Positions 37,401 through 63,846 of a DNA stretch of 64,000 nucleotides are shown piece after piece. Below the pieces are notes generated by a model. The model worked only from the letters and a program-made list of their open reading frames with translations, was not told the origin of the DNA and made no database searches. The stretch lies in the NCBI GenBank assembly GCA_001692895.1, contig KV748211.1:1426001-1490000 (forward strand), written 5' to 3'. Position 1 is the stretch's first letter; each line of letters begins with the position of its first letter. Made by a program: the position numbers and the translations under genes. The DNA is from Cenococcum geophilum 1.58. Taxonomy: Eukaryota; Ascomycota; Dothideomycetes; Gloniales; Gloniaceae.

Positions 37401-37415
37401 TAACTATATAAATTA

Positions 37416-38419: not shown

Positions 38420-38539
38420 TATATAATAACCAAATTATTATATATTCCTATAGATTTCTATAATATACTTTTAAATATATTTATATTATAACTATATAAA
38501 ATATAGAGCTATCTACTTTAGGTATTAAGGGGGAAGCCT

Positions 38540-39722: not shown

Positions 39723-40470
39723 TTTATAAAGCTATAAACATTTTGCCAAGCTACCCCTTAGAATCCACGTTTTTCTATAGCCCTTGCGGAAAACTAACCG
39801 TTTTATTTAGTAATTTATTTTCTTTTTTTAACCCCACCTCTCGTTCTTTTTAAAGTTCCGCGCCTCCATTAAAAACGCTATCTAGTTTTTTAACCTCGCC
39901 GCCTCTCTTTCTTGCTTGCTCCTCCCTTCTTTTCCTCCTCCCCCCTTAACCTCCGCGCAAGCGCTCCTAATTATACGCTCGTGCCGTACCGCCTTCTTCC
40001 TTCTACCTCCTCTATATTCTTAGCCCGCTGCAAAAATACAGGCCTGTCTTTCCTATACTACACTGCCCTTAACGCCCAGTTTAACCGCTGGGGGTCCTAT
40101 TTTAGGCCCCCCCTAAGATAGATAGAAATATATATATCCTTCGCCCGCCGTTCTACTACAGTCTTTAGCAGTCTTATCTCCTTCTCTATCCCCAACCTTA
40201 AATTCTAACTACTCCTTTTACTTATTCGCTATCGCGATTTCTAACTAATCGGCCCACCTACTATCCTTTTAATCCCTCCGTCCGCGTCTATCCCTCGCTA
40301 CTTCCATTCTTTTATGCCCTAAAGATAGCTTCCCTTTGGCAGCGATAGGCACTATATAATACAGTAACGGCTATTCTATAACGGTCTCTACATCCGTCCC
40401 TATATCCGTCCCTATATTCGTCCCTATATCCCTTATTAATCCGCGTCCGCTAAAGGAGGTAGATATAGGG
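39723..40470. other. Pyrimidine-rich spacer upstream of the DUF3435 relic
   Basis: C/T-rich on the plus strand (for example 39895-39950), possibly the promoter/5' leader region of the following relic. A 69-codon frame at 39912-40121 has no recognisable domain. Confidence 0.4.
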
Positions 40471-43400
40471 CCCTTTAAAGCTAAGCGCTGCTTTCCTAAT
40501 AACCTAGAGTCGCGGAGGTAGAGGGCCTTATTAGCCTTAAAATTATACGCCTTTTAGCCGCTAGATAACCGCCTAGTGATTATAGATATAACGGGCCACC
40601 GTCGCGATTATACTATAGTGGTCTAGAGATTATAAATAAGTATACCCTTGCCCATCCGTCCAACGTCTTCTACTACCCTTCCCTCCTCCGCCTCTCCTTT
40701 CGTTTTTAGCTACCTTCTTCTTACTAACCCACGCGCCTCTCTATACAGATTTATTAGGGATATCCTATAAGTAGACCTAAATAGTATCTAACTTAACCTG
40801 TGCCTTGCGTCTAAAACGGCTAAGGATTATTGCTAAGTATTCCTCTAGGCGTATATTAAGAACTTAAAGCGAAGATATTTAGTCCTTAGACCGTAAGAGT
40901 ATAAATATAAGCGGATGGTAAATACGGCTTCTTCTATTACGCATTTCTAGAGGGGGCTTATTACTTAAGCCAACTCTATAGTCCTACTAAAGAAAAGGCA
41001 GCAAGATTCTAAGAATAAGGCTCTTTAGAGACTAAAGTTTATTAACTACACTAAGCAACGTATATAAGGGCCAATATTTAAAATATCTAAGGTTAGTTAC
41101 ACTAACGAACCCTACGCCCCTCCTCCCTATCCCCCTTCCCCTTCCCTTTCCTCTTATTCCCCTCTATAGATCCTCTACATAGGTATATAAAAAGGTTAAA
41201 ATATCTATTCTAACCCCCCCCCTCTTAGTAAATCTATAATGGCCTTATAGATAAGCTTGGTCTTACAGTTAATTAAACCTTTAAAAAGGTTAAGGCGATA
41301 GCCAAAGATATTATTGTTATCCTTAATACGCTATAGGAGCGTGCTAGGGATATTAATTGCGAGCCTAACACCTAGCTCGCGTTTTACGCCATCCTCCTAA
41401 CGGCGGGTATTAGCGGCTTTAAACTAGCCTCTATAATGTGCCTTTTATACTAGTAAGTTAGTCTAGCAGTTATATAGGACCTAAATAACCAAACGAGGAC
41501 AAGGCTCGTTGTTATAATTGTAGTTAAAAAGAATAAGAAAAAGTAGGCTAGCTACAGCTCTAGAGCCAACGCGTAAGCCTAACCCTATCCTTACTCTATG
41601 TCTTTAGGAACTCCTCGCCCTACCCTAGTTACTTTCCCTTATTTACCTCCTTTATTCTAATAGGATATCCTTTTCTATTACCCTCGTCCTATATCTAAAT
41701 ATATATCTCACCAGCCTTATCGCCACGCGCGTGATTATAGATAACGCCTTTAAGCCTAGCTTTAAGTCCGTTAACGCGCTACTCCATTAACCCGCCCTTA
41801 AAGGAGTGGACTTCCTCCCGCTAAAGTAGAAGAAAGAGATACTAAACCAGCCTATTTTTCCACTCGCTTACTTAAGTTTTAACTATTTATAGCACTAAAC
41901 ATGCCTTATAGCCGGTTTCCGGGAGGACTTATACATTTACGCGCTATAGGTTAGCGCAGGAGCTAGACTTAATAGTAAGAGAATTTAAGGTAAATATATG
42001 TATATGCACATGCATATATTAAGCAGCGCATTTCCCTACTACTTTCCTTTTTAACTCCATAAATAGTAGGGATGGCTACTAACTTCTTTAAACCGCTAGG
42101 TATTCTCTCTAATATACTATATAACTATATTTTATTTAATACGACCTAAGTATTCTAAGGTAGCTATTAGACTAAATGCGTCCGCGAGGATCTTATAGGG
42201 TTAGCCTTTGGATCTATAGCCGGACGGAATAATGCCCTCTTTTAGCGCCTCCGTAATATATCCCTATAGAGGGATATAAATGCTCCTATTAGCCTAAGCG
42301 AGGAGGACTTATAGGAGTTTAAATAGCGTAAGGACGTATATAATCTTCGTGGAAGCCTAGAAGTGGCGAAGCGAGCAAAAGATTATAAGGTAGCGATAGC
42401 GCTTAATAGGTAGCTCCGCTATATTATTAAGATTTTATTATCTCTAAAAGTGCAGAAGAAGAGGGCGGAATACTTTAGTCGCGTTAATGGATTAAGAGCC
42501 CTAGGTTTACTAACTATAGGCATACCCGCCGTATAAACCACCAGATCCACTCCTAGTAAGGGCGCTTTAGGCAAAGGCGCTCTAAGGAGGCGCTCTCGCG
42601 ACGCGGTGGCTGCGGTTGCTTAGTTTCTACAAAGTTACACTTAGGATATTAATAAACACTAGCCCTTTAAATAGTATTCGGAACGGTTTATAAACCTACT
42701 TATTAGATACTTAACTCGCCGGCTAAAAACGGACCTGTCTTTAGATACAGAAACTTTAGAGCGTAAGGCAGATAATATAGGTTAGGCAATACGCGAAGAG
42801 GATAAAAAGGATAAAAAAAATAAAAAGGATAAAGCGGGTAACGCAGAGGGTAAGTAAGGTGCGTTTTTATCCTTAACTAAAACAAAGGGAACGAGGGGTT
42901 GTAAGGAATAGCCTAGGTGCCTTCTTAGCTATAGCGTCTATTGCCGCCGTAGCGAACTTATAAAGTATTATAAAAAGATTTATATTAAGAACGGGATATT
43001 TAAGCAGCCCTTTTAGTGCCCTAAATGCCGCCGCCTGGGGATAGAAAATTCTTAGATTAGCGGGGGCGAGTCTATATAGAGTAACTATGTTAAAATGGTT
43101 TATAATAAGATTTATACGCCTTATTTCCCCTCCTATTTAACCCTAGCTAAGGACCCGTTTAAGTATCTTATCTATTTTAGCTTCTTTCTTTCTAGGCAAG
43201 GTCTTATAAGGCATTTTAGACTAACCTATATCCAGAAAGAAAGCATATTTAAGCAGCCCTTCCTATATCCTAAATGCCGCCGCTAGAAAAAGGAGGACAT
43301 TTAGATTAACGGACTCTCCGCATAGCCTAGTCACATAGTATTAGTATATAGTAAGGTTCACGCGCCCGATTTTCCATTTAGTCCGTGCCATTCGCCCAGC

Positions 43401-43560
43401 TCGCCCTTAGACAACGGAACTTAGAAAATATTTAGTAGGAAGAAGCGAAAGAGGAATAAGGGCGACACCGGCGCCGGCGCCGGCGGCAGCTTAGCGGAAG
43501 TAATAATAGATATAATAACAGATACGGTAATAAATATAACAATATCTAGTACTTAAACTC
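40470..43560 (+). pseudogene. DUF3435 (tyrosine-recombinase-like) gene relic with two C2H2-like tail units
   Basis: Plus-strand relic. The first third has LNLCLASKTAKDYC near 40793 and FINYTKQRIQGPIFKISK near 41040-41085, as in the N-terminal part of DUF3435 proteins. Then IIDNAFKPSFKSVNALLH lies near 41730-41790, DLYIYALQVSAGARLN near 41920-41970 and GLAFGSIAGRNNALFQRLRN near 42195-42255. SLSEEDLQEFKQRKDVYNLR and LKVQKKRAEYFSRVNGLRAL follow. A likely intron starts at GTAAATATATG (about 41990). Two similar cysteine/histidine units end the protein, each with FKQPF and PKCRR, near 42950-43130 and 43170-43370. DUF3435 is the domain of Starship captains but also of other fungal proteins. RIP stops are frequent; the gene is dead. 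Confidence 0.8.
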
Positions 43561-44866
43561 TAGCGTCTTCCGCGGACTTTAATATTCTTCTAAGAATTAA
43601 TCCTCGCCTATTAATAGGTAAGGTAGAGGTAGAGAAACAGGAGAGAAAAATAAAAAGGCACGTACTGGCGCCTACCTTACCGTCTATATTAAGATAGTCC
43701 TACCGTATAAGTCCTTCGGCGTGGAGACTAAGCTTAGTTAGGACGGTTTAGCCCTAAGATACTAGGCAGTTAATATGTTATATAGCACTAAAATTAATCT
43801 AAACTAACACTACAAAATACTTTTAGCGGAAGCATTTCTCTAACGTTAAGTAAGGTAAACAGATTAAATGCAAAGTCTATAAAAACTATGCTCTTAGTAT
43901 ACACGGGACTATTTCCTAATCTATCCTTTAAAAGCTTGCTAGTAAGCTATTAAGGCTAGTAAAGAGCTTTTCCTTTAACTGGACACTAGTTATTATATTA
44001 ATCGGAGTTCGCGTAATAAGTAGCCTATATAAGCAAGATTTAAGGAGAATAAACTTACCTTAAATCGCAGTGAGCGGTTAAACCCGCAACGTATAGCGGC
44101 TATATTTAGGTATAGAAGCGGTAGTAAAACTTAATAGAGACGTTTTAAGACCTTATAGAGCCTCTTTAAATCCGCCCTGTTCGCGACCTATACTAATTAG
44201 CGCTAAAGCTTAAAGTAACGCCTAAGAGTCTAACAGGAACTAAATTTCATCCTTTCTTTAAAGATATAGCTATTATTTACATTCTTTATACTATTATATA
44301 GGCACTATAGTAGCAAAAGAGCTATTATATAAGACTTTAACGGAAGTAGCTAAAGAGATAACAATATTCTATTATGGCTTAAATACTATGCGCTTATGTA
44401 GCAAATATCTATATACTAAGATATATTTAGTTCGCTGGTATTAGCGCTATTATAACTATATATAGTTACCTATCCTATATATCTATTATGCTAGAGATAT
44501 ATTAGACGTATTAATTCGTTAATAGTAGTAATCATTCTCGCACTATTATAGGTATAATAAGTATGTAAGAGGATTTAAGTAGTAGAGAACAGTATAATAA
44601 GACACAATCTATATATATATAAAAAAGAAAAGTAATATAAATATAAAAGGGGTTTTTTTTAAGAGAAAACAAAAGAAAGTAACATTCTAGGTAACCTAGA
44701 CGGCTTAATAGATATAAGAAGATCAGCCTAGGGTTTGCTAGAAAGCTATACACACAATTTATAAAAATCCTATTTAGCTCTAGGTAATGGAAACTGGTTA
44801 ACACTAACAGAGGAGTAAGATAGTAATTAGAGGCTTAAACTAAGTAGGATAGAGAGGATCTAAAAC
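43561..44866. other. Unclassified RIPped sequence
   Basis: No family recognised on either strand. The 90-codon minus frame at 44804-44532 lies just downstream of the exchanger pseudogene and is a low-complexity F/L/Y/I-rich frame without support. Confidence 0.4.
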
Positions 44867-44940
44867 TTATTTTAGATAAAACCAGCTAGCAACTACAATA
44901 ATAGTATAGATTGCCATAATAAGAACGCCTTTAAGCCAGT

Positions 44941-44991
44941 CTATTTTAGTGTTAGTTAGAGTGGATTACCTATATAAAAAGAAAAACTTAC
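44941..44991 (-). other. Intron 3 of the exchanger pseudogene
   Basis: 51 bp, GTAAGT...AATAG, containing CTAAC. Removal gives NSKSNWLKGVLIMAIY, matching the family's C-terminal GKSNWLEGVLLMATY. Confidence 0.8.
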
Positions 44992-45684
44992 TAGATTTAC
45001 TATTTTAGATAAGATAGTTTACTAAGAGCATGGCAACAAACAAAACAGCTATTAGAAAGATATTAAAATAAAGCGTTATATAATCCTAGTTGATAATCTA
45101 ACCGAGTATAACAACGAAGGGAAGAACTAGAAGAGTAATTTGTATACTAGATCTAATAGCAACATTAATTACTAGACTTATCTCATCCTTATAAGCTACT
45201 GTGACCGCTATTATATACTTAGCAGCGTTCCTAATAATTAGGAGTAGGATAAGACCGACAAAAGTGGTAGAGATAGTGCCGCTTGCCGTAACATTACTAA
45301 TACTATTAACTATAAACTTAGGACAGAAGGCGACTAACGCGGTAAAGAATCTAAGGGTTATAATTGCACCCCAGATCGTCAATTTAGGCTCCTTAATCTC
45401 ATTATCTTCCTCTTCTACATTTAAATCCTGCATAAGCTGTTCTTAGTTTACTCCGCCTCTAAATATAGCCGCCGCTCTAGCGCTAATCTATACGATACCA
45501 CAGAGAGACATACCCTACTTAACTTAGGAGGATTTACACTTAGGAGCCCTTTAGCTTAGAGTATTATACATTTCGGTATATAACTTTAATTAAAATATAA
45601 GGTAGTAAACGTATATAATTAGGAGGATAACAGCTATTCCGCGGGAAAGCTCCCAATTAAGTATAGAGCTATTAGGGCTTATAG

Positions 45685-45733
45685 CTACATAGGTTAGTAT
45701 CTATTATAGGTCTAAAGCTGTTATTAAACTTAC
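45685..45733 (-). other. Intron 2 of the exchanger pseudogene
   Basis: 49 bp, GTAAGT...TGTAG, with a perfect ACTAAC branch site 7-12 bp before the end. Removal joins FHSTLL to ISPNSSILNWELSRG in frame. Confidence 0.8.
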
Positions 45734-45981
45734 TTAATAGCGTAGAGTGGAAGGCGGTTAAAATAATTAGACTACCAACGTACAAAGCTAGAAAACTGGC
45801 CGCAGTATCTACTACTGTTATATTAAAATATTGTTCTATCCGGTTAATACCTCTAAAGAAGAAGCATATGCTAAGGATAAGGAGTAAGTTTAAAAGTATA
45901 CTGCCGATTAAGGAAGTTTTGACAATAGTAATCTAGCCTTTAGTTAGGGCTAAAATAGAGACAATTAATTTAACAGCATTT

Positions 45982-46033
45982 CTGCGCTAAATATTAGATA
46001 ATATTAGGACAAATAAGAAGCGGAGAAATGTAC
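45982..46033 (-). other. Intron 1 of the exchanger pseudogene
   Basis: 52 bp, GTACAT...CGCAG, with a CTAAT branch-like site. Removing it joins NITF to RNAVKL in frame, at the place where the CAX motif (T-F-G-N-A-V-E-L) is expected. Confidence 0.75.
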
Positions 46034-46431
46034 CTAAAAGTTATATTTAAAAGACCACCTAATATATCACCGGCGCGGAGCGTAATCTCTTTAGTAGCGT
46101 AGCTAAGCATTATAGTAAGCGGAATAATGGCAATAAAGTTAATAATAAATATGGTAATACCGTTAGCGTAAAGATAATTAACTATAAAGCCAACGGGAAT
46201 AGTAAGAAGAAGTATATTTATCTATAAGCTAAATAAGACAGCACGAACCTAATCCTTAGTAGGTATCTTACGCTTTAAAGCTGCTTTCAGCCTTTTCTCC
46301 TTAGTTATTAGCCTAGGATATAAGGATCTTCGTAGGCCTATACTAGCCTCTTCGTTAGGTCGTTTATTATTAAACCCTATCTAGGCTGCTTAATAAGCTT
46401 TTAAGAGTGTTGCTAGATCTAAATATGCCAT

Positions 46432-48547
46432 TATAAGCACAGCTTTTAATTATTCCTAGAAAGAGCAGGATAGAGAAGGGCGATTTTATAGTTTAGAGGG
46501 TACCTACACATAGCAAAGACTAAGAAGTCCAATAGTACTCAGGCCAACACCGACGCCTCAAATCTATAATAGTGCGTTTAGCTTTTTTTTTTCAGTTAAT
46601 TTTATAAGCGAGGATCCAAAGCAAATTCCAAAATAGTTATTATAAAGGAGAGGAGGATTAACGTTAATAACTAGACAGAATGGCTAGTGAAAAAAGGAGA
46701 AGATAAAGTATTCTAATAGACGAATAATAAGTAAAAAGTAAACCAACTACTTATAGAAATGAGGACGCAGTAGAACGTATAAATAAGGGTATAAGTCTAT
46801 ATGCCTTTAAGTACCGGCTACCTACTATCTTAAATATAAGTCCTTCCTTAACGCAAGGCAGATTAATAGGAGTTGTTATACCGCCTGTATAAGGCGGAGC
46901 GCTTATAAAGGGCTTAGCTAGAATATTAATTAAACTATCTTATAACGCACTAATAGCTCCTTTACTACAGATGGGGAGTAAATATACGAGATTAACTGGC
47001 TAAGATAAGTCTACTGCTTAAGCAGTGTCTTGCTCCGTAAAGGGTGGGCGTTAAAAGTAAACTATATAATGCTACTCCTGCTAGGTAAGGCGTTATTAGA
47101 AGGTTATTATTGGCTTTTAGTTCTAGTTTATAACTTTATATAAACGCCTCTAAACCCTACACTATTGGGGCTATCTAAAAGCTAAGTTACCTGTTTACCT
47201 TATCTTGACCTTAGGCTAGGCTCGTTAGCTATTAATTTATTAAGGCGACAGAAAGTTACGTCGAGGCGTATAATAGGGCTTAAGTAAAGCCACGTAACTA
47301 AATAGGTATTGCTGTACGAAGCAACGCTTAACCAGCTACCTCTATATCGCCGTCTCAGAATAATTGGAAGAAAGGAGTTAATACTAGCCCTTGTTGTTTA
47401 ATATAACCCTCCTATAGAGGTATAGCAAGTAGGGTATAAACGGGGAAGGATTATGCTCTTGTTGTGGCTGTATTATAGTGCATTCGTAATACTGTACTAG
47501 TATCCCTAAGTTAGTAAATCGGCTTAACTTTTAAGGTATAGTTAAAGCAGAGCCTACTATTAGCTCTCCTATTAGCTAAGTGGTAAAGAGGAGCAGGATA
47601 TAAAAGGCCTCTATATCCTTTAACTAGACCTATATTAAGTACAGTATCCTTTAAGGAAATCCCTCCTTACTTTCTCGTAAAGACACTTAAACTATTAGCT
47701 ACCTTATCTCTTTAATAATAAGCGACTTAGAAGCCACGATAGAGGATACCATATTATATTAGATTAAGGTGCGCTCTAAACATTAAATCCTTTACGGGAT
47801 ACCGCTAATAGAGCTAGGATATACCGCTTATTTCTAATCCTAAGGGCTCTAATAAGGCCGTTAATATAGTAGGGCAGGTATGCGATAGTTGCTTCCCTAT
47901 AGTTTTATCTATTCGCTAGCTTACTAACATAAGTAGGATATCTAGTTAGTACTAGAACGTAAGAGTGATTTAGAGAACGACGAGGCCGATATAGAAGGAA
48001 CTGTAAGGAAATATTTACCCCGCACTAACGAGATAAAGAAGTCGTCTTAATATAGCCCGCTTGGTAACTCCTTCTAATAAAGCTTATCGACCCTAGCTTA
48101 CTCTATTAGGGGCAATAGAGAGACTAAGTAGCTTAGTTAATTAACTTAGCTATAGGCTCAGCTAACTTAAAGGGAAAGTTAGCAGCCTTAAAAAAAGCGA
48201 CTACTACATTGTGGGTTATCTAGGGAAGGTTAACAATCGGATCGACAGCTTAAGAAGTAACTAGGAAGAAATAGAAAATACTATTAGGCGGTTTTAAAAC
48301 GAAATCTATACTCTTAAGAGAGGTAGTAATAAAACTTCAGATTATGGAGGTAAATAGGTTATAAAGGCTAAAAACAAGATCACGGCATCTAAGAGAAAAA
48401 GGGCACGCTTAGTCTAAGGATGGAGAAGTCTATAGAATTAAGGAGGAAATTTATTAGCTTAAATAGTACGCTCTTTAGTTATTATATTGTTTGCTTATTA
48501 AAGGAAATTTATATATTAGATTTAAGCTAGAACTAGCCCTACCCTTT
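46432..48547 (-). other. Unclassified RIPped relic, possibly coding on the minus strand
   Basis: A minus-strand frame around 47480-46900 stays readable except for TAA/TAG codons (for example LYPTCYTSIGGLY, ILRRRYRGSWLSVASYSNTY, LVTWLYLSPIIRLDVTFCRL). It looks like a decayed protein gene, but no family was recognised. In RIPped DNA TGA is rare, so absence of TGA alone is weak evidence. Confidence 0.35.
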
Positions 48548-48559
48548 ATAGCGAGTGTT

Positions 48560-50730
48560 GTAAGACGTTCATCCAAACCTTCACCACACATGCAACCTTA
48601 CCAAAAGGTAGCGCCACACTCCAAAACTTACGCATACCCATCTTACCATCAAAAACAATCGATTTTCTAACTTTCAAGACCTAATTCCTACTGCCTAGCG
48701 AGCTAGAGGTGGATTTATTGGTCGTTTTACCCCCTTTTCCCAACAGAAAAATTTCTCTAAGGGTGGCCCTAGCTTATAAGCGAGGCACGGACAAGAACAC
48801 CAAAACTACTACCACTACCACTAATACCAAAACTACAAAATAGGGGCTAGTTTCTCTACTACCTCTTAGCCTAATCTCCCCAGAAATCTTCTAGTAGGAT
48901 TAGTAAGGAGAAAGGGTATAAGGATAGTAGGAAACCCCCCTATAAAATGCCGAAGCAAAAGCCTGGTAGGCCAAAAAAAAAACCTCCTTTAGAAATAAGT
49001 GATCATCAGTCTGATATATTCACCTTTTCTTTCCCCTCTTCTTCTTCTTCTAGCCTATTTAGGGCAGGAGAAAAAAGAGGACATCCTCAGTCTTCTCTTG
49101 AAAATGAAAACCAAAACCAAAACCAAAAACCTGCAAAAAAGATAACAAAATCGATGACTACTACGGATAGTATGCCTAGCATACCTTTCCCTCCCCTTTC
49201 TCTAAAACAACACCTACAAAAAGCTCTAGAAAGCCTAACTCAGGCCTATAAAGGGTAAGAAGAAGAAAAAGAAGAAAAAGAATAAGTTAAATAGCTAGAA
49301 GACTATACACGGAGTATCCTAGCAGGAGAAACCCCCTTTATACAAGGAAAAGAAAAGGCAAAAGATGTCCTACAAGGACTAGTAGAAGAAGTAAGAGCTT
49401 TCCGTAAGGAGGTAGCTCCTACGAAAGAAACTTACGTAGAGAGGCTAAAGAAAGCCTTACTTCTTCGTCCTCCCCACCCTCTCCTTATTATCATTACCAC
49501 CACCACCTTCTACCCCTTCTAGTAGGAGTTTTACTTCTACTAGAAGTAGGAAAAAGCAGCTATAAGAAAGAAAGCTAGTCCTAATTACAGACGAAAAGGA
49601 CCAACCTTTAGATACCTTCCTTTATACGGAAACAAAGTCAACCAACTATTTGCATCAAAACTGCAAGTAGAAAAGCTAGTACTAGCGTCTATAGCTAGAA
49701 ACTAAAGGAAAACAAAATATTCTCCTTACGACTACGGAAGAGTATAATGCGGATTTCCTAGTTAAATATAAGGAATCTGGTATAAACTGCTTTAACTTTT
49801 AAAGAGAACAAAAACTGGAACTATGGGTTCAAATTATAGCCATGGGGTTCCTACCCTACCTTCCTAGGAGAAGGGGCTTAAGCTTCTAAAAGAAGAAATT
49901 GAGACCTTTAATCCTATAAGGATACAAGGAACTAACCTAGATGGATCTTATCTAGTGTAAAAAGACACGATCTACAGACCAGGATTTGGCTCTATAGTTT
50001 TTACTATAGAGAGCGAAGAAAAAGACAAGAAATCCTTAAGCAAAAAGAGATATCAATTGCAGGTACAGCTACTAAGGTAGTAAAATACCTCGAAGTCTCT
50101 CCTACTACGCAGTGTACCGAGCTGCCAAAAAATTTGGCCATATAGGAGATAGTTGTGCTCTACTAGGGCCTGCAGATACTGTTGCGGCTGCATATTTATC
50201 TAAAGACCCATTCCTGTTCTACCTGTATAACAACAGGCAAGCCTTGCCAGCATACCCCACCTTCTTTGCATTAATTGGTAAAGAAAAACACTTTGCTAAT
50301 AGTAAAGACTGCGAGACTCTTAAAGGCTGCTAAACTAGTACGCGAAGAAGATTCTATGGAAGAATTAAAAACAGATAGGATTCTAGAAGGAGGCAACTCC
50401 TACTAGGCCTCTTAAAAAGATATTAGAGAGCAAAAGGATAGAAATAAATTGCAAAAGGACAGGGACAGGGGTTAGGATTTCTTACAGTTTTTCTTACCAT
50501 TTTCTCATTCCCTAGTAGTTGTAGTATCTTAGTATTTTACTAGGAAACTATAAACTCCTAATTTAGGGGTTTATAAACTACTAGGANATAGCTACTAGTA
50601 NATATTAAGCTGCCTAGAAAGGATTTATGTATATAGAACTATAGCGCTATAGCCTAAGGCTGCATGCGTAGTATTGTACGTAGTATAATACAATGGATAT
50701 AAAAAAAATAAAAAATAAAAAATAAAAAAA
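48560..50730 (+). mobile_element. Non-LTR retroposon (LINE-like, ORF1 only), 12-bp target duplication, A-rich tail
   Basis: The element lies between two copies of ATAGCGAGTGTT (48548-48559 and 50731-50742) and ends in an A-rich tail (about 50700-50730, AAAAAAT units). Variable-length target duplication plus a 3' A-tail are the marks of target-primed reverse transcription. It is 2171 bp. It holds a gag-like ORF1 region but no reverse transcriptase, so it depends on another element or is a truncated/non-autonomous type. It keeps far more CA/TG than its flanks, which implies late arrival. Two ambiguous bases occur at 50587 and 50601. Confidence 0.8.
48947..50430 (+). pseudogene. ORF1-like (gag-like) gene of the retroposon, lightly RIPped
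   Basis: Starts MPKQKPGRPKKKPPLEIS with an AT-hook-like GRPKKK, then a Ser/Asn/Gln-rich stretch and a coiled-coil-like region. The first frame is open for 103 codons to 49258. Downstream the same kind of sequence goes on with a few TAG/TAA codons where Gln is expected (LEDYTRSILAGETPFIQGKE, AKDVLQGLVEEVRAFRKEV). A later open piece (50112-50333) reads FGHIGDSCALLGPADTVAAA. No RNA-binding knuckle was identified with certainty. The general layout resembles ORF1 of fungal Tad-type LINEs; assignment is by context (target duplication and A-tail). Confidence 0.45.
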
Positions 50731-50742
50731 ATAGCGAGTGTT

Positions 50743-51063: not shown

Positions 51064-51066
51064 TTA

Positions 51067-51653: not shown

Positions 51654-51656
51654 TTA

Positions 51657-52073: not shown

Positions 52074-52524
52074 TAAGGTCACCAAATGCTTTCGAAAATT
52101 CTTATTTATGGCTCACTTCGACCTTAATTATACTTTCTGCTTTAAGGAATAAGAAATTTCTTATAAAGATTTTCGTAATTACGTTTATCTCTTTTAGCAT
52201 TTATTAAGAATTAAGGCGTTAATTAGGATTTCCTTAGCTTGGTATTGTGTTTCTATATAGTTGCTTTTATGTTAAGAATCTCTCGTTATTATCCGCACGT
52301 AAATAAACAAGTTCTTATATATTAGATTGAAGTTAGAGACTCGCTTATAGTAAGCAAGCTTAATAAGTCCTCTACCTTTGTATGCTTAATAGTGATAAGT
52401 CAGCTACCCTATAACTCGCTTAGTCCTTAAGGTCGTCACTTTATAGATATCTTAGAATTAACCTTTGTTGACCCATCCTCTTTAACCTAGTTAAAATGTG
52501 CTGGAGTTTTCTTAACTGGAATAG

Positions 52525-52800: not shown

Positions 52801-53886
52801 TAATAAATAATTAATGGCTTAGTAGCTCTTTGGTGTTTTTATAGGATAATTAGGGTGTAGGTTAACTCTGAATTTTATATTAATAAGGTGGGAATGTTAA
52901 GAATAAATATAGGATATATTCTAAGTTATAACTCTAAGAACTAAATCTTGTTCTAAGAACTGGGTCTAATTCTAAAGACTATATTTTAATTCTAAAGACC
53001 GTATCCCAATTCTATTTTTAGGAAACGGGCCTATTAACTGTTAGGAACGCTTGCTGGGCTAAATACACTAAACACGGCTAAAAAGGTAAACCTACTTATT
53101 TACGGGCGGTTAGTAATTCTGCCGCAACACTTTAGTAGTTAAGGTTTTAATGTTCTTAAAATCGCGTATAGGCCATATATATACAGCTAACGACGGTATA
53201 AGGGATAGTGTTAAGCTAAGCGGCTTAATAGTCTTAGGAGGGGTAAGTATAGGGCTATTTTTACCTTAGCTTAAATCGTAACCCGACCCTAAAGCTAAGC
53301 CCCGACCCTAGCCCTAGGAGACAGCTAATTAACTATTATAAAAAGGGCGCGATCCCAAAAACTGGATCTGGTTTTAAGAAACTAGATTCTAATTTTAGGG
53401 AACGGGTTGATTAACCGCTGTAAAAAGAGGTTAACTGTCTATATTTAGTATATTAGGTTTAGCTTGTTTTAGAACCAGCTACGTAATTATATATAGGCGC
53501 TTATATAATTAACCCTAGTTAACCCACTCTTGGGAGCCCTACTATATTAGAGCCTTATATATTACGGAATAAACTAAAACTAGTTATTATGGCTTAGTAT
53601 TTAACTAAGCCCTACGAAGCCTTAGTCTGAGCCACGTTAGGTTAGCTTAACTTTTCCATACCTAATTTTTAATCTTCTGTATTCGCTTCTACCTTGCTTC
53701 CTTCCTTATACTTTTCTCCCTAGTCATTTCCTTATTACAAGACGCGCTTAACGTATTCTTGGCCTCCCTATACTTATCTGCTATTATACCGTCCTTATAT
53801 GCTAGCCTCTTTAATCTCCCCTTCTTGCCTACCTACCTGCCTGCTACGCGGCCCTCCTAATATAGCTTTTAGCGCGTTCGCTTATA
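52801..53886. other. Unclassified spacer upstream of the FunK1 relic
   Basis: RIPped AT-rich sequence. Short repeated words such as TAATTCTAAAGAC at 52970-53000 and GAACGGG-type words recur. 53680-53880 is pyrimidine-rich on the plus strand, as expected near a fungal promoter. No gene recognised. Confidence 0.4.
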
Positions 53887-56358
53887 ATGGTAAATTTCTC
53901 TAAATTAGAGATAATTAAAATAAAGCCTATTGGGGAAGGACTAAATAACTTTCGCGATTTATTTAATTTAACTTATTAGGATTTAGGTATCCCTAGCTCT
54001 CTAGACTTGTTGTATTAGATAGGCAATAAAGGTATTTATTAATTTATTTAATAAGTCCCCTCTAACACATATAGGCTTAAAAATCTTATAGTTAACCTTA
54101 TCCTAGCATTATAAAACCTTCCTACTGTTTAATTACTGCTATCTAGCGCTAGCCGTGGCACTCTTTATAGCGACCTTCTCTGACTTAGCTCCTTGGTTAA
54201 TTCTAACGACTTTAATATTAAACGGTTTACTTCTTTTTTAAAAATAGTTCTTAATCGCGAATCAGATAAGGATATATAGAGTAATGCTATCGCTACCGCA
54301 ATAAAGTCTATACCTCCCCCCTAACTGCTGCCATTCTACGTTTAAACCCTATATTAATATAATATAAGTAGCTTCGCCAACTCGTCTAAACACAGGAAAT
54401 ATGTGGATAATGTTCTAAAGGAGGAGCTAGGCCCTCTTTACGTTGGGATTCCTAACTTATATAAAGTATTCTTTAGGGGAGTAGAAGGCCTTAGGGTGGT
54501 AAGCGCCGCCGTTTTTAAGAAATGTAAGGAAGGGGATAATCCGCTATACGCTAAGGGCGGCTAGTGTAACTGGCCTAAAAGCGTAGAGTAAGATAATGTC
54601 CTAAAGTGGTTTAATAACCTAATTGGATTATTTTTGGGCTTTGTAAAGGAGTATAGGTCCGCCCTAAAGATATAACAAAAGCTTGTTATATATACTAAGC
54701 AGCCCTTATAAGGGTCTGCGGCGAAGCGAAAGCTAAATATTAGTTTTATGGATAATCTAATAGCCGGCGAAAGCTCTTAATGCTATTAGTTGTATATACT
54801 TATACTAGGAGAGCTAAAGAGTAATCTAAACACCGATATACCCTTATAGGCATAGTTTGATTTAGGGAAATATATAAGAGAAGTCTTCGCCGCTTAGGAC
54901 ACTCGTCGCTTTATCTTAGGCTTTACCCTCTATAGATCTATTATATGGTTATAGGAGTATAACCAGGTAGAAGGCATTATATTATTATTATTTAATATTA
55001 ATAAAGACGGACTATAATTTACCTTAGCAATATTAGGATTTCTCTAGATAAATAAGAAGCAGCTTAGGTTTAACCCTACTATTCTAATATTAGACGGCAA
55101 ACGATATATTAAGGTCGTGCGCAACAGTTAGACTAAGTGTCTTATCCTTAACGAACTTATAAAGCGTATACGCTATATCGCTAGTTAAGCGACTACTTGC
55201 TAGAAAGCACACCGTAAAGGGATACTTAAGATACCCATTATTATTAAAGACTTGTGGTAGTACCTAGAGCGCAAGGAAGAGGGTAAACTGCTGCTTAAGG
55301 CAATGGAGAAAGGAGTGGTTAATATGGCCAGGTACTATTACCATAAGACTATTTATATAGGTGGATAAGATAATGACATCTTTAATATCCATAAGGGGCT
55401 AGATATTAAAAGAGCGACAAACTATAAGCCAGAAGGCTTAATAATGCCTCTAAGATCGGCCGTAGCGTAAATTAGTATAAGGAAAGGCCGCAGTTTTAGC
55501 AGAAAGAGGTCTTCTAGCTATAGCGCCCCATTACCGCCTAGTAAGCGCCTATATTTAACCTCTCTAACTAAGCGCTCTATCGTGCAGAATTGCGTATATT
55601 AACGCGTTATTACTAGTAACTATAGGAAACCTCTTTATAAGGCAAGCTCTTAGGCTGTAATGCTTGCTATATTAAAGGGTGGTATTAAAGGATACGAGTC
55701 TTTATATACGTAGGCTGGCATTATCTAATATAATATTTTAATAGGCAACCTTATAATGAACGAGGAAGATAATAATCCTTCTTAGCCGGCATTCTTAATT
55801 AACTTCAATCTCGCGATTAAAAAGAAGTAAGAAGGACCTTTGGGAGTACGGGGCAAGACCAGTATAAGAGCATTTATAGCTATAGGAGTGCTTCTAGGCA
55901 AGAAATACTCCTTTAGGCATAATCTGGAGTCGTTTTTCTAGGTGCTTTTCTGGATATGCGTACACTATAATAGGCTAGGTAAAGATATCGGTCTAACTAA
56001 GTTTAAGCGTTGAAACTATAAGAATACTACTAAGTTGGCTAAGTTAAAATTGGGGCTAGTAAATAGGGAAGGGCATTTTCTTAATTGTATAGCTAAGGTA
56101 TTTACACCTTACTACTAGCTACTAGTTCTATAGGTTAATAAGCTATAAAAGGTAGTTTTCCTAATAGACGGGAGGTGGGAGAAGGAAGATAGGGGGCTTT
56201 ATTTTTAGATAAAAGAGATTCTCTAGCAAGCATAGAAGGATTTAAAGGTGCTAGCAGAGTAGATAGAATAATATTTTATTATCTTATACTCTTCCACTAT
56301 ATAAGTAAAGTTTTGCTAAGATTCGGCCAGGGGCTTATAGCTAGCGGCTAGAGCATAA
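53887..56358 (+). pseudogene. FunK1-type fungal protein kinase, RIP-killed, frame intact
   Basis: From ATG at 53887 to TAA at 56356-56358 there are exactly 824 codons in one frame, interrupted by stops mostly at expected Gln/Trp codons. FunK1 (PF17667) kinases are large expanded families in fungi with unknown substrates. Matching stretches include FILGFTLYRSIIWL, FNINKDGLFTLAILGFL (with a stop), ILDGKRYIKVVRNS, NMARYYYHKTIYIGG, DIKRATNYKPEGLIMPLRS, APLPPSKRLYL, RVITSNYRKPLYKASS, LIGNLIMNEEDNNPS, PAFLINFNLAIK (the DFG-like site, family FLIDLDLAIK), RGKTSIRAFIAIGVLLGKKY and FFVLFWICVHYN (with a stop). Asp-to-Asn changes hit the metal-binding site. Length is normal for the family. The absence of any net indel suggests silencing by RIP alone. 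Confidence 0.88.
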
Positions 56359-57955
56359 ATAGTAATATTTGGTGAAACGCATATAAAATAGGGTAGGGTA
56401 AGTCGCCTAGGCTAAATAAACCTGGGAAAGTAGATAACCTAACCGCCTTATTGTAATAATGTGTCTTATTTTAACTATGGTATAGTTATAATTATAATTA
56501 TAATTGGCCTTTATAAGGTATAAATAACATTCCCTCCCCTACAGAGACGTTATTGTATATTAGTATCTCCATACTAGCTGGTCTACCTCCATAAAGGGCT
56601 CTTATGTTAATTTAAAAGTTAGGTGGCCTTTTAGCGAGTAGAATAGAGAAACTGTTTTCCCGATCCCTTTTCTGGTTTCGCGAATTCTAAATCCTAAAAC
56701 CGTAATTTAGGAAATAGGATTTAGATTTACAAATTATAAAATCGTGAATTGGGAAATAGAAAACTAATTTTGGAGATATAACCTTAACTTTAATAGCGCC
56801 AGCTAGGGGAGCGAGTAAAAGAAAGGCCCCTATTAAGCTAGATACCCGCAATAATATATAAAATAGGATAGGACAATATTTAAGTAATTTCTTTTACCGA
56901 ACAATTTGCTATGCTCTTTAAACTCCTTATTAAAGCTATTACTATTACTCTTCTTGTTTATATATTTATTATTTTATAGCTTAAAAGACTAAGAGAATAT
57001 ATATATTATCGTCTATATCCGCGGATATTCTCTAGGACCTTTCTATTATATAGGACAAAACACTCCTCTAGAGATAATCTATCTTCTATAGGACCGTCCA
57101 AGACGTAACCTTCTTGGTTAAGCGCGAGAGCTAGCCTATAACTTCCGTTACTGGCTTTATAGGGGCTATAATACTTGTGACCATCGGCCGTTAAATAGGG
57201 GACATTTGCCTGCTTACGACGATAATCTAAAAAATAGTCCTCTAACGCCCCTAAATAAGGAGGACTGCCTAGACCTTATATTTAAGGATAAAGATAAGCG
57301 CTCCTATCTTCCTAAGTACAAGGGTTAAGGTTAAGTCTTTTAGGGACGTTAACGGTAAGTAGGTAATATACGTAAACCTTTTATACTTTACTAATACAAT
57401 AATAGTTAGCTTTAAGTAATATTAGTAACGGTCTATAAGCATTTTATTACTCTTATACTTTAGTTAAAGTATTTTTAGTTACAGAATCGCACTATTAGAT
57501 GTTTTTGTGTCTATATAGGATACTTTAATAGAACTATTAAGAGATGCCTTTATAGACTTGCCTACGTGTCTCTTTAAGTATATTTTACTAATAAATAGTT
57601 AGGGTTTCTTCTAATAGTGAATTCCACGGAAAGAGCGTAGGGTAACTCTTGTTAGATATGCCTTATTTTTAAAAGAACTAAAATAAATACGACTTTATAT
57701 TGCCTAACCAACGGATTTACCCTCCTATTTTGGTAAAACGGCTATTACGCTAAGGACTATGCTGAGATTTTCTTCTATATCCTAACTATTAGCTAACGCT
57801 GCCTTTTAGTTAATTACTTATGTGAAAACTATATGTTAGCGAAACTGTTTTAGATGGCCTTTTAAGCTCCGCCCAATATATATTTACGCCACGTATAAAA
57901 ATAGCCTTTAAATATTACGGACCGAAGATTTATTTTAAGTTACGGTAATACTACT
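56359..57955. other. Unclassified RIPped sequence
   Basis: No domain recognised on either strand; AT-rich with repeated TTAGGAAATAGGATTTAG-like words at about 56690-56760. It may contain decayed exons of a neighbour. Confidence 0.4.
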
Positions 57956-58535
57956 TAATTAATTTAATTCTTTCTTAAATAGCGTATATAAGCTAAAACC
58001 CTTACTATAGGAGGAGTACGAGCCCTAAGCTCTATAAGGAATTTAAGAACATCAGCTATACCTAAGATAATACTTATACTACTCGCCGCTATACGCCTAT
58101 GCTAGCTTAGTGCGTTAATATTAGCACCTACCTTAATAAGTAGCCGAAGCATATCTATATATCCGTTGTTGGCCATATAATGCAGTGGTGTATTAGCGCC
58201 TTAATTAAACAGGCTTATATCCTAAAAGTCCCTCCCTAGATCCCTGATCTAATTAGCGGAGATATCCATGCCCTTGTCAATAAGAAGTTGAACAGCGTCT
58301 ATAAATCCCCGTTTAGTAGTAAAATGTAATAGCGTAAAGCCGGAAATATTACGCTCCGAGATATCTACTTCCGCCTTAAGCAGTAGCTTTATTAAAATGG
58401 TTTTTCCTTACCCCGCTAGGAGGTGTAATAATGTATTTCCGTAAGGATCTCTTAGGTAGATATCGACCTTTTTTTTTTTAGTAAGGATTTAAAAGTAAAT
58501 GCGCGGTTATAAATAGCAGCCCATTCCAAAACTAA
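57955..58535 (-). pseudogene. Ankyrin-repeat protein relic
   Basis: The minus strand shows consecutive ankyrin repeats. They include DPYGNTLLHLLAG and KTILIKLLLKAEVDISERNI near 58455-58360, SGFTLLHFTTKRGFIDAVQL and LIDKGMDISAN near 58345-58255, and GANTPLHYMANNGYIDMLRL and LIKVGANINALS near 58200-58110. A further degenerate repeat reads IAASSISIILGIADVLKFLI near 58085-58025. The TPLH and LLL...GA(D/N)(I/V)N signatures are clear. Stops fall at Gln-type codons. The N-terminal part, which in such proteins would carry an effector or F-box domain, was not recognised upstream of 58535. Ankyrin repeats mediate protein binding; the partner is unknown. Confidence 0.8.
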
Positions 58536-59989
58536 CCCCCTTTTTCTTTCTCTATAGTAGAGTGTAATATTACTAAGTCTAGTCGTTAGACAGCCAGAGA
58601 GCTTATAGGTATACGTAAGAGCGATAAGATAAAGCTTGCTTATTAGAGCTGTATATAGATAATTCGCCGACTAACTAAGTAAGCTTAAACTCGCTGGATT
58701 AAGATAATTTATAACTATAAAGAGGAGTTTTAAAGGAAGGTTGACTAGATAAAGGGCCACTATAGCTGTAGAAGCGATTGTTACCGGGCTATTAACCTAG
58801 TAAGAGGGTTGACTTAACTTAATTAACCTTATAAGGAGGGGTGTAAGCAGAGGTAGATATAGTAAAAAATCTTAGAGGCAGAAAATAAAGAAAGTTTAAG
58901 AGGGCCATAGTTATATAAGAAGGTTAACACTAGAGCATTTATACGGAATCCTAAGCACTACCTCTAATAGTGTATTAATTCTCCTATATTTAAGGTGTAG
59001 TTCTATAGAGTCTAGATTTTAATTTTTCCGATCTGGTATATACTAAACTGGATTCCAAATTCGTTTTCTAGAAAAACGACTTTAGAATCTAGATTTTAAT
59101 TTACGCCAATACAAATTTATTCTTTGGAAAAATCAACCTTTAGTTTTAAGGGACATAATAGATCCTTTAATTAAACTATAATAATTGCCCTAGCTATATT
59201 TTCTACAAACTTATTTTTAGGAACCTAAAACTTAAGTATTTAGGCAAATTTATTAAAGGAATAAGAGGTAGGAATAGTTAGGGTTACCAGAAGTTTAAAC
59301 GGAATTCTATATTAAGTAATATAATAATATATATATTTTTTACTTTACGGTTAAATCACTTCCGTAAATGCAAATCTAGTTATTATAAGCATTAGTCCAT
59401 TTAATACTATTCTAGCTATTTCTACCGTTTGCGTTTTAATAGAATGCTTAAAAGAGGCCTCTTTAGTGCTTAATAATCAATATAGCTAAATGGGGCATCT
59501 AGACCTTAAATTATTACTAACTGCTAAAGTGTCTTTGGAAGCCCACTAATTACCCTTAGCTTGCTTATAATCCCTCTAATTAATATATACACCTCCTCGT
59601 CTATACTTTCTATAGTAAAGTATATACGCCGTCTAAATAATGGGACGCCCTTTAGTATAGACTCTATATAAGCCACCAGCCGCCTAAAGATAAGGAAGAA
59701 GGAAGAGGTCCCAATAAGGGTATAATAAAGGTTCTCTCTACCTTAATAATTAAGAGTTAAACGGTAAAATATAGTCCCTTAATACTGGAAGTTACCATTA
59801 ACGAAATAAGGTACGTTATTAAGCTTAAGGTAGAAAATAGAAGTATAGATCGAATCCTTTACTAGGGTTACTTATATACTGGACGTAATAGAATTATATA
59901 CCAATTATTTAAAATCCTTAAGTAAAGATAAATCATTAATGTTTAGCTCCGGACCGTTAAAAAATGCATTAAGACGATAGTATTGGCTA
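58536..59989. other. Unclassified, including the probable tail of the patatin relic
   Basis: The minus strand at 59620-59480 reads FTIESIDEEVYILI then RGIISKLRVISGLPKTL, continuing the sense of the patatin relic at 60-61.3 kb, so this may be its C-terminal part. The rest has no recognisable domain. Confidence 0.4.
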
Positions 59990-61300
59990 CGCGCTTCCAT
60001 CAGCACGCTATTATAGAACTTTTTCTATTTTCTTTCTTTATCTAAATTGGCTATAAATGCCTAGACTAGGCGCAAAATACATCAATCTATAACTAGGGAT
60101 TATACTCCTACCTTATATTCGTAAGTAGAAGAAGTGCTAATCTCTAGAGAGAGTATAAAATCCAGTTAGCCCTTATTTAGCTAGAGAAATTAGCATTCCT
60201 AAAAAGCAACAAAATAAGGATTATTATACCTAAGGCTACTATCTTGGTAAGTACCTAGGTTGTTAAGTACTTTAGGCTTAAAATACTATAGAGCCGCAGA
60301 TATGCAGGAAGCACTTTCCCGGCGCAGTTAGTAGGAAACTTAAGTTAGGAAGGTAGGCTCTAGAGACTTATGCTTTACTAATTAATACGTTATACTCTAG
60401 TCGCTAAGCCCGAATAAGTTAGTACCCTTAAGTTAATATTAGTAAAATCGGATAAATAAATATCTCTAACCTATATACCGCACTCCCGAGGTCTTTATCC
60501 TCTATTATAGTTTAATATTAAATAAGGCATAGTTAGTCGCGCAGTCGTTATTATCACCGCAACCTTTATGTTATTCTTTAGTGGATTAAATATTTTAAGA
60601 GAAATACTCAGACTCTATTGGAACGCGCTCTTAATAGTAGATGAATTATACTAATAGTCTCTAACAAGAGCGCTAATAAGTCTTTGAAATCTTCTTATTA
60701 AGGAAAGGCGTCCTTTTTAATCTTGTGGAAAAGTCTTTCTAATAAGCTCCTTAAATTAACGGAGAGACTCTTGGAGATCGTATAGCATAAAGTATATTTT
60801 AATACTAATTAGGCCGCCTTAAAAGTATATTAGGAGATAAATTATCTAACTAGCAACTAATATGTACTAACTAAGGTCCCATAGATATAGTCGAAATAAT
60901 CCTAGAGTGGGCAACCAAAATGCTGAACTTGTTGCTTAATGTAATTAAGGAAAGTAAGAGGTATAACGCTATAAATACCGCCTCTATCTATATAAAGAAC
61001 ACAAGCGCTAGCTATAGGTAGAATGAATTAGAAGCTAGATATTTTCTAGGGTACCCTATAAAGTAAGTAAGAAGAAATAATAAACGTGTGCTTTTCCGAC
61101 TTCGGTTTTTAACTAAAGGTCTTAATGCATACATTATAGACCATATGGCCGCAGTTAAAGACCTTTTTAGGCATCCTTATTAGACAGTAAAAGCAAGATT
61201 TATGGCTCTTAAACAGTGCGAATTGTGGCTAAAAGGACTTAAGTCGTTAATAATATATAAGTGAGGCACTCTCTATAGCGGGCTGTGATACTACTTTTAT
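59990..61300 (-). pseudogene. Patatin-like phospholipase relic with an upstream zinc-binding-like segment
   Basis: The minus strand reads CGHMVYNVCIKTF near 61155-61115, a Cys/His arrangement seen just upstream of patatin domains in some fungal proteins. Then comes ASACVLYIDRGGIYSVIPLT near 61015-60960 (family VLSIDGGGxRGVIPL), followed by FGCPLQDYFDYIYGT near 60915-60875 (family FGCPLxDFFDFVxGTSxGG). Further on, KVAVIITTARLTMPYLILNY then NRG lies near 60570-60500. The oxyanion-hole DGGG reads DRGG, and the GxSxG serine motif is not readable. Patatin domains hydrolyse membrane lipids and act as effectors in some fungal NLR-type cell-death proteins. No nucleotide-binding domain was recognised here. 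The N terminus and C terminus are not delimited. Confidence 0.72.
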
Positions 61301-63096
61301 AAATAAGGCTTCCATTTCCTCTTAAATAGCCAAAATGAATTTTTGTTGTATATCTTTATAGATAGTGTAATTATAAATCGCGTTTTTGTAAGCGTTTATA
61401 AAAAGCGCATTAAAAATAAGCGATAGGAGGAAATCTACGCCAATTAGCTAAATAGTTGATTGGTATATTATATAACTCTTATAATAAGATCCTAGCGTAT
61501 AACTTACTAGTAGTAAAGCAGAAGCAGTTAAAGGTACTATAAAATGCCATAGCTATGCCTAGCTTGGCATTTTACGGATTAATTCTTATAGATACTTTTG
61601 GAATTCTTATATAGTAAATCCTTAAGGACGAGATAACTAAATAAAATAGAAAGATAACTTATCTAAGTAAAATTTGTCTATTATAATTATAAAAAGCGCT
61701 TTAATATAGCGTATATTAAAGAGAAATCTATTATATTGGCGGGCCTACACAGCCTCTATGGAGGCTAAAAGAAGGCATTTACGTAATATAGAGGAACAAA
61801 CACTGCGATTCCATTTCTAATTCAATCTAAGGACTTAAATGCTATGGAAATGGGCACCCAAGTCTTTTTTAATATTGTCTTCTTGTTTGTATTCCTTAAC
61901 ACTTTTTATAACTATTCTTATATTAGTCTAGAGCTTAGCTTCCGTAATAAACGGGTTAAATATAGTAGATAAAGTGTTAAGAACTATAAGTATATAAGGA
62001 AGAGTAGATTAAAGGAGGCTATATAGTAGAGGCTTAGTAGCCTAGCATGCTAAATACTTTAATACACTATAAAGCCCGCCTAGGTCCGAAGCAAAGTAAT
62101 ATATAACGTTTAAAAAGGAGCAAGGACGTAAGCAGAAAGAGAATTTATAATTTCTTTCGCCGAGCGATAGCCTAATTTCAACCATTTAATCTATCTTACT
62201 ATTTTGTACCCGTTCTATAGGCTAGGTACAGAATTTAATAAACTATAATTATAGATCTTAGAGTTAATATATATTAACAGGCTGTTATCTTTTTATATCT
62301 TTAAGTTACTTTAAAGGTAGACCTAATAGTGGGAGTTTATTAAAGATGGATCGTTTTTCTCACCGAGGATTTGCCTAAGGAGCTTAGATTTAGTTTATCT
62401 GCTAATTAGCGTAATAAAGGAAGGAGTTATATTAGGCTTTAACAAAAGAGACCTAAAAGCATAATGATAAACTCTTAACACACTTTTACTCCTTATGTAG
62501 GTGATCCTTATCTAGGGTAGGTCGTTTATACTTAGGCGGAAAGAGATATAACTAGTACTGGCTTAACCTCTACTATTTAGCAGGGACTAACGGCTGTTTA
62601 TATTTCCAAAGTGGGCCTATTATATTATAATCTTAGCGTTTAGTTGCAAATTATATATAAACGCCAGATCCGAACATCCTAATTATAAAATCTAAAATCT
62701 AGATTTCGGAATCTGGAATCTAGCTTAGCGTGGGCCGGATTGGAAAAATAAAATGCGCGGTTTAATATTTTAACCGTGCTTAGGAAACCAAATCGCAACT
62801 CTAGAGTTTAATTTTTTTAGAAAGTGGTAGCTCCGGGTATTCTCTTTTTAAGCAAGAATATAGCGTTTTAGTGCCCTATATAAGGAGTAGGTATAAAGAA
62901 GGGATTTATACGCGCTATTTTTATATTATCTATGCGAGCTTATAGGATTCCCACTTCGCGCTTTATATCTTTAGAGCTCTTTACCTATTAATAATTACTA
63001 CTACTTTAAAGCTCCTATATAGATTTCCACTTTAGCAGTAAGTATTCTCGCCGCTTAAGTATAACTACTTACTGTGCTAATAAATAGTTATAGAGA
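61301..63096. other. Unclassified RIPped sequence between patatin and F-box relics
   Basis: No convincing motif on either strand. It may hold the decayed 5' part of the patatin gene up to about 62.3 kb. A promoter region for the rightward F-box gene would lie at the right end. Confidence 0.4.
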
Positions 63097-63846
63097 ATGT
63101 TGCTGCCTGATCTGCTATATAAAATATTATTATTAATAGCTAAGAACCTATAAGTGGAGGGATATATTAACGCTTTCGCCTAGATAAATAACCGCCTTTA
63201 TAGTATTCTAAATCCCTACCTTTATCGCTATAATGTCGAACGGGAGGATAGTATGGCACTAATATAGGCTGCGAAATGAGGACAAGATATAACTGCTTAA
63301 AAATCTCTTAAAGCCGCCAAAATTAGAGTGGTAACTTAATATCGATACTACGGGCGTGCGGATTTATTATAGGCAGTAAGGAACGGATATAAATTAGTAG
63401 TACGGCTGTTAATTAAAAGTAGACTTAGTAGTTTTAACCCAGAGGGCCTTTTATATAAGCTGTTATACGCTATAAGGTTTAGGCAAACAGCAGTAGTATA
63501 GCTACTCTTAGAAAGCGTTAATGTGAACTATAAGTAGGAAAACGGCTAGATACCGCTATTACTAGCTGTAAAAAGGGGGTATAAAAATATGGTTTAACTG
63601 CTTCTAGAATATAAAAATGTTTATATTAATATAAAAGACTGTATTGGTCGGATACTACTATTATAGGCTATTAATTATAAGCATAATATAGTAGTATAAC
63701 TTTTAGTTAAGTATAGGGGTGTTAATATTAACTTAAAGGACTCCTTAGGTAGAACGCTATTATCTATAGCTAAAGTATATAGGGACGCTACAATAGTCCA
63801 ACTGCTTTTAGAGTGCGAAAGTAATAGTCTAAAATCTATAGACTAG
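63097..63846 (+). pseudogene. F-box / ankyrin-repeat protein, RIP-killed, frame intact
   Basis: ATG at 63097 to TAG at 63844-63846 gives exactly 250 codons in one frame. The N terminus reads MLLPDLLYKILLLIAKNL, then FAQINNRLYSILNPYLYRYN with one stop. This is the F-box-like pattern (LPxELLLLIAExL...INALxxTNRRLYxLLNPYLYRHN) that precedes ankyrin repeats in many ascomycete proteins. Ankyrin repeats follow: ADLLQAVRNGYKLVVRLLIK, AIRFRQTAVVQLLLESVNVN, PLLLAVKRGYKNMVQLLLEY and INLKDSLGRTLLSIAKVYRD (Q marks TAA/TAG positions). The final stop may be premature or native. F-box proteins recruit targets to SCF ubiquitin ligase; the target is unknown. Confidence 0.82.

What the first reader, a model, noticed from the sequence alone, without database searches (positions are those of the whole stretch)
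40470..63846. Possible decayed Starship-like giant element: DUF3435 gene facing a run of RIP-killed cargo-type genes
A DUF3435 relic points rightward at 40.5-43.6 kb. The following 20 kb hold dead copies of non-transposon genes: a Ca2+/H+ exchanger, a FunK1 kinase, ankyrin, patatin-like and F-box/ankyrin proteins. In Starships the captain is a DUF3435 tyrosine recombinase at the 5' end, read inward, and patatin-like and NLR/HET-type genes are known accessory cargo. Against this: DUF3435 genes with C2H2-like tails also occur outside Starships, no terminal or target sequence was seen, and multi-copy host gene families also get RIPped.
Basis: partly seen in the sequence, partly recalled or inferred. 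Interest (0 to 1): 0.75.

Follow-up and report, generated by a model that had tools for sequence, protein, structure and literature searches.

The report
Mutation-killed recombinase gene beside dead genes
A stretch of what looks like fungal DNA holds a dead recombinase gene of the kind that moves giant jumping elements, followed by a run of equally dead ordinary genes; it may be a ruined giant element, but no ends of one could be found.

Summary
The observation largely holds. A DUF3435 relic on + matches PF11917 (E 8.5e-6, 25.4 bits, cut-off 25.8); the match lies in 41.39-41.98 kb, and the rest of 40.5-43.6 kb is by-eye reading. To its right lie dead copies of a Na/Ca exchanger (4.3e-12), a FunK1 kinase (5.3e-75), two ankyrin genes and a patatin-like gene (PDB patatin E 2.6e-4). 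The F-box and zinc-finger tail are by eye only. The decay is RIP-type.

New here: genes and spacers in 44-64 kb are equally RIPped (composite index 1.03 and 1.10; 1.01 for five spacers alone), while at the intact HET gene the signal fades within about 300-450 bases. So the block was probably repeated along its length, not hit gene by gene. That fits a giant element or a segmental duplication.

Not shown: Starship boundary, terminal repeats, empty site or captain family. The block runs off the window, no own genome or relative was reachable, and in papers DUF3435 genes are more often solo than in a called Starship. The Starship reading stays possible (about 0.4), not established. RIP-hit Starships are already described, so interest is moderate.

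The parts
38550..39740 (.). Tandem-repeat arrays just left of the DUF3435 relic; similar arrays lie at 12.7-13.5 kb and 21.2-21.9 kb. Not shown to belong to the element.
40470..43600 (+). DUF3435 tyrosine recombinase relic (captain-type gene), RIP-killed; only 41.39-41.98 kb is supported by a Pfam match, the limits and the C2H2-like tail are by eye
44830..46240 (-). dead cation/Ca2+ exchanger gene (Na_Ca_ex)
   Evidence: 44869-45298, E 4.3e-12; 45750-45929, E 0.001; 46020-46199, no hit; the limits are read by eye
48200..50735 (+). possible LINE-like relic with A-rich tail, by-eye reading only, no Pfam support
   Evidence: no retroelement hit (48875-49258)
51650..52080 (.). small element with about 56-base inverted terminal repeats (MITE-like)
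53750..56300 (+). dead FunK1-type fungal protein kinase gene
   Evidence: PF17667 E 5.3e-75 in 54301-56250; the limits are by eye
57900..58620 (-). dead ankyrin-repeat gene
   Evidence: E 1.6e-18 in 57960-58599
59480..61800 (-). dead patatin-like gene
   Evidence: PDB 1oxw E 2.6e-4 in 60851-61045; the rest is by eye
62950..64000 (+). dead ankyrin gene, F-box by eye only, runs off the window
   Evidence: E 1.2e-25 in 63250-63999; no F-box hit

Best explanation
The 40.4-64 kb stretch is the 5' part of a large unit that once existed in more than one copy and was then killed along its length by RIP. Its leftmost recognised gene is a DUF3435 tyrosine recombinase, reading inward, and most of the rest is accessory-type genes. 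The likeliest such unit is a Starship-type element: its recombinase would have cut and moved the whole block, a second copy would have triggered RIP, and RIP would have killed both recombinase and cargo. Shown: the gene identities with hits, their order and orientation, and uniform RIP. Inferred: past duplication as a unit. Not shown: mobility, ends, target site.
For: DUF3435 identity. Inward orientation with five non-transposon relics downstream. Transposon domains left of 40.4 kb against no Pfam transposase, RT or integrase hit in 78 fragments covering most of 43.5-64 kb. Genes (8055 bases, CRI 1.03) and spacers (8098 bases, CRI 1.10) equally RIPped; five spacers without the unassigned 46240-48200 stretch give 1.01 over 6137 bases. 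In 44-64 kb 80 of 80 windows of 250 bases have CRI above 0 and 78 of 80 above 0.5; at the HET island the RIP signal fades within about 300-450 bases, so long spacers are hard to explain by leakage. RIP-hit Starships, captain included, are on record (PMC12257634, passages).
Against: No terminal repeats found. No RIP or composition step at 40.4 kb. The right end is outside the window. No relative, strain or own genome could be compared. An accessory-type gene (HET, intact) also lies left of the relic. Spacers may hold unrecognised repeats, which would also be RIPped. In Verticillium 21% of captain-like genes lay in Starships called by Starfish, and most transposons in Starship regions there showed no RIP signature (PMC12289983, passages). 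Patatin-like genes were absent from the Starships of Gaeumannomyces (PMC12134995, passages). A segmental duplication would give the same RIP pattern.
Confidence: 0.4

Rival explanations
1. A solo DUF3435 relic happens to lie in an accessory, perhaps subtelomeric, compartment that was copied as a segment; the duplicated segment was RIPped. The recombinase did not move the neighbouring genes.
For: DUF3435 genes are more usually solo and captains do not form one clade (PMC12134995, passages). The left side holds many transposon relics and repeats. No element ends found.
Against: Order and orientation (recombinase first and inward, then non-transposon genes) are what a Starship predicts. Weak evidence, since no control count of such arrangements could be made.
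Confidence: 0.35
2. Each dead gene belongs to a multi-copy family (FunK1, ankyrin, patatin, exchanger, DUF3435) and was RIPped on its own because of relatives elsewhere; the block was never a unit.
For: The families named are often multi-copy in fungi (recalled, no call). RIP acts on duplicated DNA (recalled).
Against: Spacers are as strongly RIPped as genes, while the signal fades over a short distance at the intact HET gene. How far the repeats beside HET reach is not known, so the leakage distance is only an estimate.
Confidence: 0.2

Closest known systems
Starship giant transposons of Pezizomycotina (captain with DUF3435, PF11917)
   Same: DUF3435 gene reading inward, non-transposon genes including a patatin-like one downstream; a RIP-hit captain and a RIP-hit Starship copy are described (PMC12257634, passages)
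   Different: no ends, direct repeats, empty site, mobility or captain family shown; the length in the window (about 23.5 kb) would be a lower bound
Solo DUF3435 tyrosine recombinase genes
   Same: a DUF3435 gene without a detectable element around it, as in published surveys (passages)
   Different: here followed by a run of accessory-type gene relics that share its decay
Crypton-type tyrosine recombinase elements (NDC10_II domain; the link Crypton - NDC10_II is recalled)
   Same: also tyrosine recombinases (recalled); a relic with NDC10_II lies at about 11.4-12.0 kb in this window
   Different: another domain family; the relic at 40.5 kb matches PF11917 and gave no NDC10_II hit

Membership tests
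Starship | captain gene with DUF3435 domain | tested here: met
   PF11917 E 8.5e-6 for the joined pieces, 25.4 bits, just under the curated cut-off 25.8, model 31-210 of 418; a relic, not functional
[quoted passage not shown]
   orientation fits, but no 5' end was found, so 'first gene' cannot be stated
Starship | flanking short direct repeats (2-12 bp in 19 of 20 high-confidence elements, PMC12153272, passages) | tested here: inconclusive
   longest direct match between 39740-40470 and 43600-64000 is 13 bases, 19 of 30 shuffles reach it; a purine/pyrimidine-coded match of 40 is reached by 0 of 30, but it pairs low-complexity stretches only 50% alike in bases; nothing left of 39740 was tested this way and the right end is outside the window
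Starship | terminal inverted repeats (18 of 20, same paper and call) | tested here: inconclusive
   longest inverted match 12 bases, 27 of 30 shuffles reach it; purine/pyrimidine-coded match 31, 2 of 30 reach it, at the same pyrimidine-rich stretch
Starship | empty insertion site in a relative | not testable with these tools
   no own genome held; pattern scans of viral and prokaryote contigs gave 0 hits
Starship | captain falls in a named captain family | not testable with these tools
   no captain reference set on hand; captains and solo genes are intermixed in trees (PMC12134995, passages)
Starship | cargo of non-transposon genes, size 15 kb or more | tested here: inconclusive
   five non-transposon relics over about 19 kb, but that they belong to one element is not shown

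The most novel reading that the evidence does not exclude
An undescribed Starship, killed along its whole length by RIP after it had been present in two or more copies, with exchanger, FunK1 kinase, ankyrin and patatin-like cargo and repeat arrays before the captain; its equal decay in genes and spacers would be a way to recognise fossil Starships after their ends are lost.
Probability: 0.3. Interest if true: 0.5.

Novelty: new member of a known kind. Interest (0 to 1): 0.38.

Why it matters
The Starfish tool needs an empty site to call a Starship and cannot identify fragmented ones (PMC12153272 and PMC12289983, passages), so old, RIP-killed elements may be undercounted (inference). A block whose spacers and genes are equally RIPped next to a DUF3435 relic gives a concrete, checkable candidate for such a fossil. 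If it is a solo relic instead, it shows how easily RIPped accessory DNA mimics one.

Tried and rejected
Whole-frame Pfam scans with X at stops (five frames) and long pieces (protein 10, protein 10) gave no DUF3435 hit; short or joined pieces were needed. The HAM1_C hit falls in the 12-base tandem array and is taken as chance; Collagen as low complexity. Adeno_E4, TSSC4, NQR2_RnfD_RnfE, Sugarporin_N and Integrase_Zn are weak and taken as chance. A purine/pyrimidine-coded self-comparison showed no second copy of the DUF3435 stretch in the window. PDB search of the recombinase reading gave two weak, unrelated hits, E 0.19 and 0.25; plasmid tblastn none; pattern scans none. No tRNA and no Rfam match at gathering scores, so no hint of such a target site. 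Counts of TTAC, CCCTA and similar words near the left edge are uninformative. BLASTP between the two ankyrin pieces gave only repeat-level similarity.

Coverage: the fragment scans of the left side (72 + and 72 - fragments) left out 21.0-24.0 and 28.1-30.16 kb; 20.6-22.2 kb on - was searched later (nothing), the + strand at 21.0-24.0 kb was not. The scan of the right side (78 fragments) left out the + strand at 54.0-56.0 and 63.4-64 kb and the - strand at 57.9-58.6 and 61.1-61.3 kb, searched in one frame each; the - strand of 40.5-43.5 kb was not searched by Pfam.

Full report
What is there. The window looks like filamentous ascomycete DNA (inferred from the gene families and the RIP pattern); no own genome is held. 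Most of it carries the RIP signature: CpA and TpG depleted, TpA raised, CpG mostly not depleted. Of 160 windows of 250 bases in 1-40 kb, 140 have a composite RIP index above 0 and 133 above 0.5; in 44-64 kb it is 80 of 80 and 78 of 80. Seven of 64 windows of 1 kb have an index under 0.5: those starting at 12001, 13001, 16001, 20001, 24001, 28001 and 29001. The last two hold an intact HET-domain gene, 28115-30157 (E 4.6e-33).

The recombinase relic. Six-frame reading of 40.3-44.0 kb shows DUF3435-like sequence on + in pieces. Isolated, one piece hits PF11917 at E 9.1e-4. Three pieces joined with X at stops give E 8.5e-6 and 25.4 bits, slightly under the curated cut-off of 25.8. The match (query 53-245, model 31-210 of 418) falls in the first two pieces, 41.39-41.98 kb; the third piece, the tail to 43.6 kb and the start at 40.5 kb are by-eye readings without a Pfam hit. 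A GT..AG intron of 77 bases (41990-42066) is one way to join the second and third pieces. Of 754 codons in the frames read 39 are stops, 29 TAG, 10 TAA and no TGA, with 3 CAA, 5 CAG and 0 TGG left; the intact HET gene has 11 CAA, 14 CAG and 17 TGG in 680 codons. This is RIP decay rather than random decay.

The neighbours on the right. Pfam identifies a Na/Ca exchanger, a FunK1 kinase and two ankyrin genes. The patatin-like gene has no Pfam hit, but a 65-residue piece matches PDB patatin 1oxw at E 2.6e-4. The F-box was seen by eye and not confirmed. A possible LINE relic with an A-rich tail at 48.2-50.7 kb is by eye only (no such hit). It keeps more RIP-substrate dinucleotides (0.71 against 0.44-0.61 in the other parts), although its composite index, 1.04, is like theirs; a later insertion is possible but not shown. 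A MITE-like element sits at 51.65-52.08 kb.

The neighbours on the left. Pfam scans of 72 + and 72 - fragments found reverse transcriptase, RNase H and integrase domains of retroelements, a reverse transcriptase on + (read by eye as LINE-type), DDE_1 with HTH_Tnp_Tc5, DDE_Tnp_1_7 and NDC10_II. Between a retroelement RNase H at about 36.1-36.4 kb and the recombinase lie a 1-kb element with 359-base inverted arms (37407-38428) and tandem arrays (38.55-39.74 kb). So the gene content changes near 40 kb from mainly transposons, with the HET gene among them, to a recombinase plus accessory-type genes, but RIP and base composition do not.

Was the block a unit? This is the test that separates the explanations best with one window. 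If each gene had been RIPped only because its family is multi-copy, the spacers should be less affected. They are not: genes 1.03 and spacers 1.10 (8055 and 8098 bases), or 1.01 for five spacers when the unassigned 46.2-48.2 kb stretch is left out (6137 bases). Leakage does not explain it easily, since RIP fades within about 300-450 bases at both sides of the HET gene. The block was therefore probably repeated along its length. Caveats: the gene limits are partly by eye, spacers may contain unrecognised repeats, and the exact edges of the repeats beside the HET gene are not known.

Is it a Starship? By the published description, a Starship has a DUF3435 captain as first gene and mostly has direct repeats and terminal inverted repeats (PMC12257634 and PMC12153272, passages). 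The gene is there, and the orientation fits. The ends were not found: direct and inverted matches between 39740-40470 and 43600-64000 do not exceed shuffles at the base level. A purine/pyrimidine-coded direct match of 40 exceeds all 30 shuffles, but it joins two low-complexity stretches (39913 and 49017) that are only 50% alike in bases. Because short repeats cannot be told from chance without an empty site, and because the right end is outside the window, this is inconclusive rather than negative. A captain tree would not settle it either, since captains and solo genes are intermixed (PMC12134995, passages). In Verticillium 21% of captain-like genes lay in Starships called by Starfish; the authors say that the rest could point to unidentified ones, and they report that most transposons in Starship regions there lack a RIP signature (PMC12289983, passages). 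Patatin-like genes are listed as common Starship cargo but were absent in Gaeumannomyces (PMC12134995, passages).

Verdict. Observation largely confirmed (two of its details, F-box and zinc-finger tail, not confirmed); Starship interpretation partly supported and open. I put a Starship-type unit at about 0.4, a duplicated accessory segment with a solo relic at 0.35, and gene-by-gene RIP at 0.2. RIP-hit Starships are already in print (PMC12257634), so even the favoured reading is a new member of a known kind.

Noticed in passing
28115-30157 +: Intact HET-domain gene (680 codons, Pfam E 4.6e-33) in a non-RIPped island between RIPped DNA; the RIP signal fades within about 300-450 bases of it.
   Followed up: partly
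about 11.4-12.0 kb, - strand: Relic with NDC10_II domain (E 4e-17, 2.5e-24), probably Crypton-type (recalled), so a second, different tyrosine-recombinase-like gene lies about 28 kb left of the DUF3435 relic.
   Followed up: partly
12.7-13.5, 21.2-21.9 and 38.55-39.74 kb: Related tandem-repeat arrays; parts of the 12-base array at 39.25-39.74 kb are identical in purine/pyrimidine code to parts of the array at 21.3-21.8 kb, so it may be its RIPped form. What element they belong to is unknown.
   Followed up: partly
13714-16239: Pogo/Tc5-type element on - (DDE_1 E 1.4e-12) with about 50-base inverted ends, itself holding a 217-base inverted repeat.
   Followed up: partly
6903-8293 and 35011-36399: Two copies of a retroelement piece, 89-91% alike in bases and over 99% in purine/pyrimidine code, so nearly all differences are transitions, as RIP predicts.
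   Followed up: no
37407-38428: 1-kb element with 359-base inverted arms, 91% complementary, TA on both sides by eye.
   Followed up: no
25526-25663 and 50587, 50601: 19 undetermined bases: 17 inside the LINE-type reverse transcriptase reading and 2 near 50.6 kb, perhaps an assembly or masking trace.
   Followed up: no
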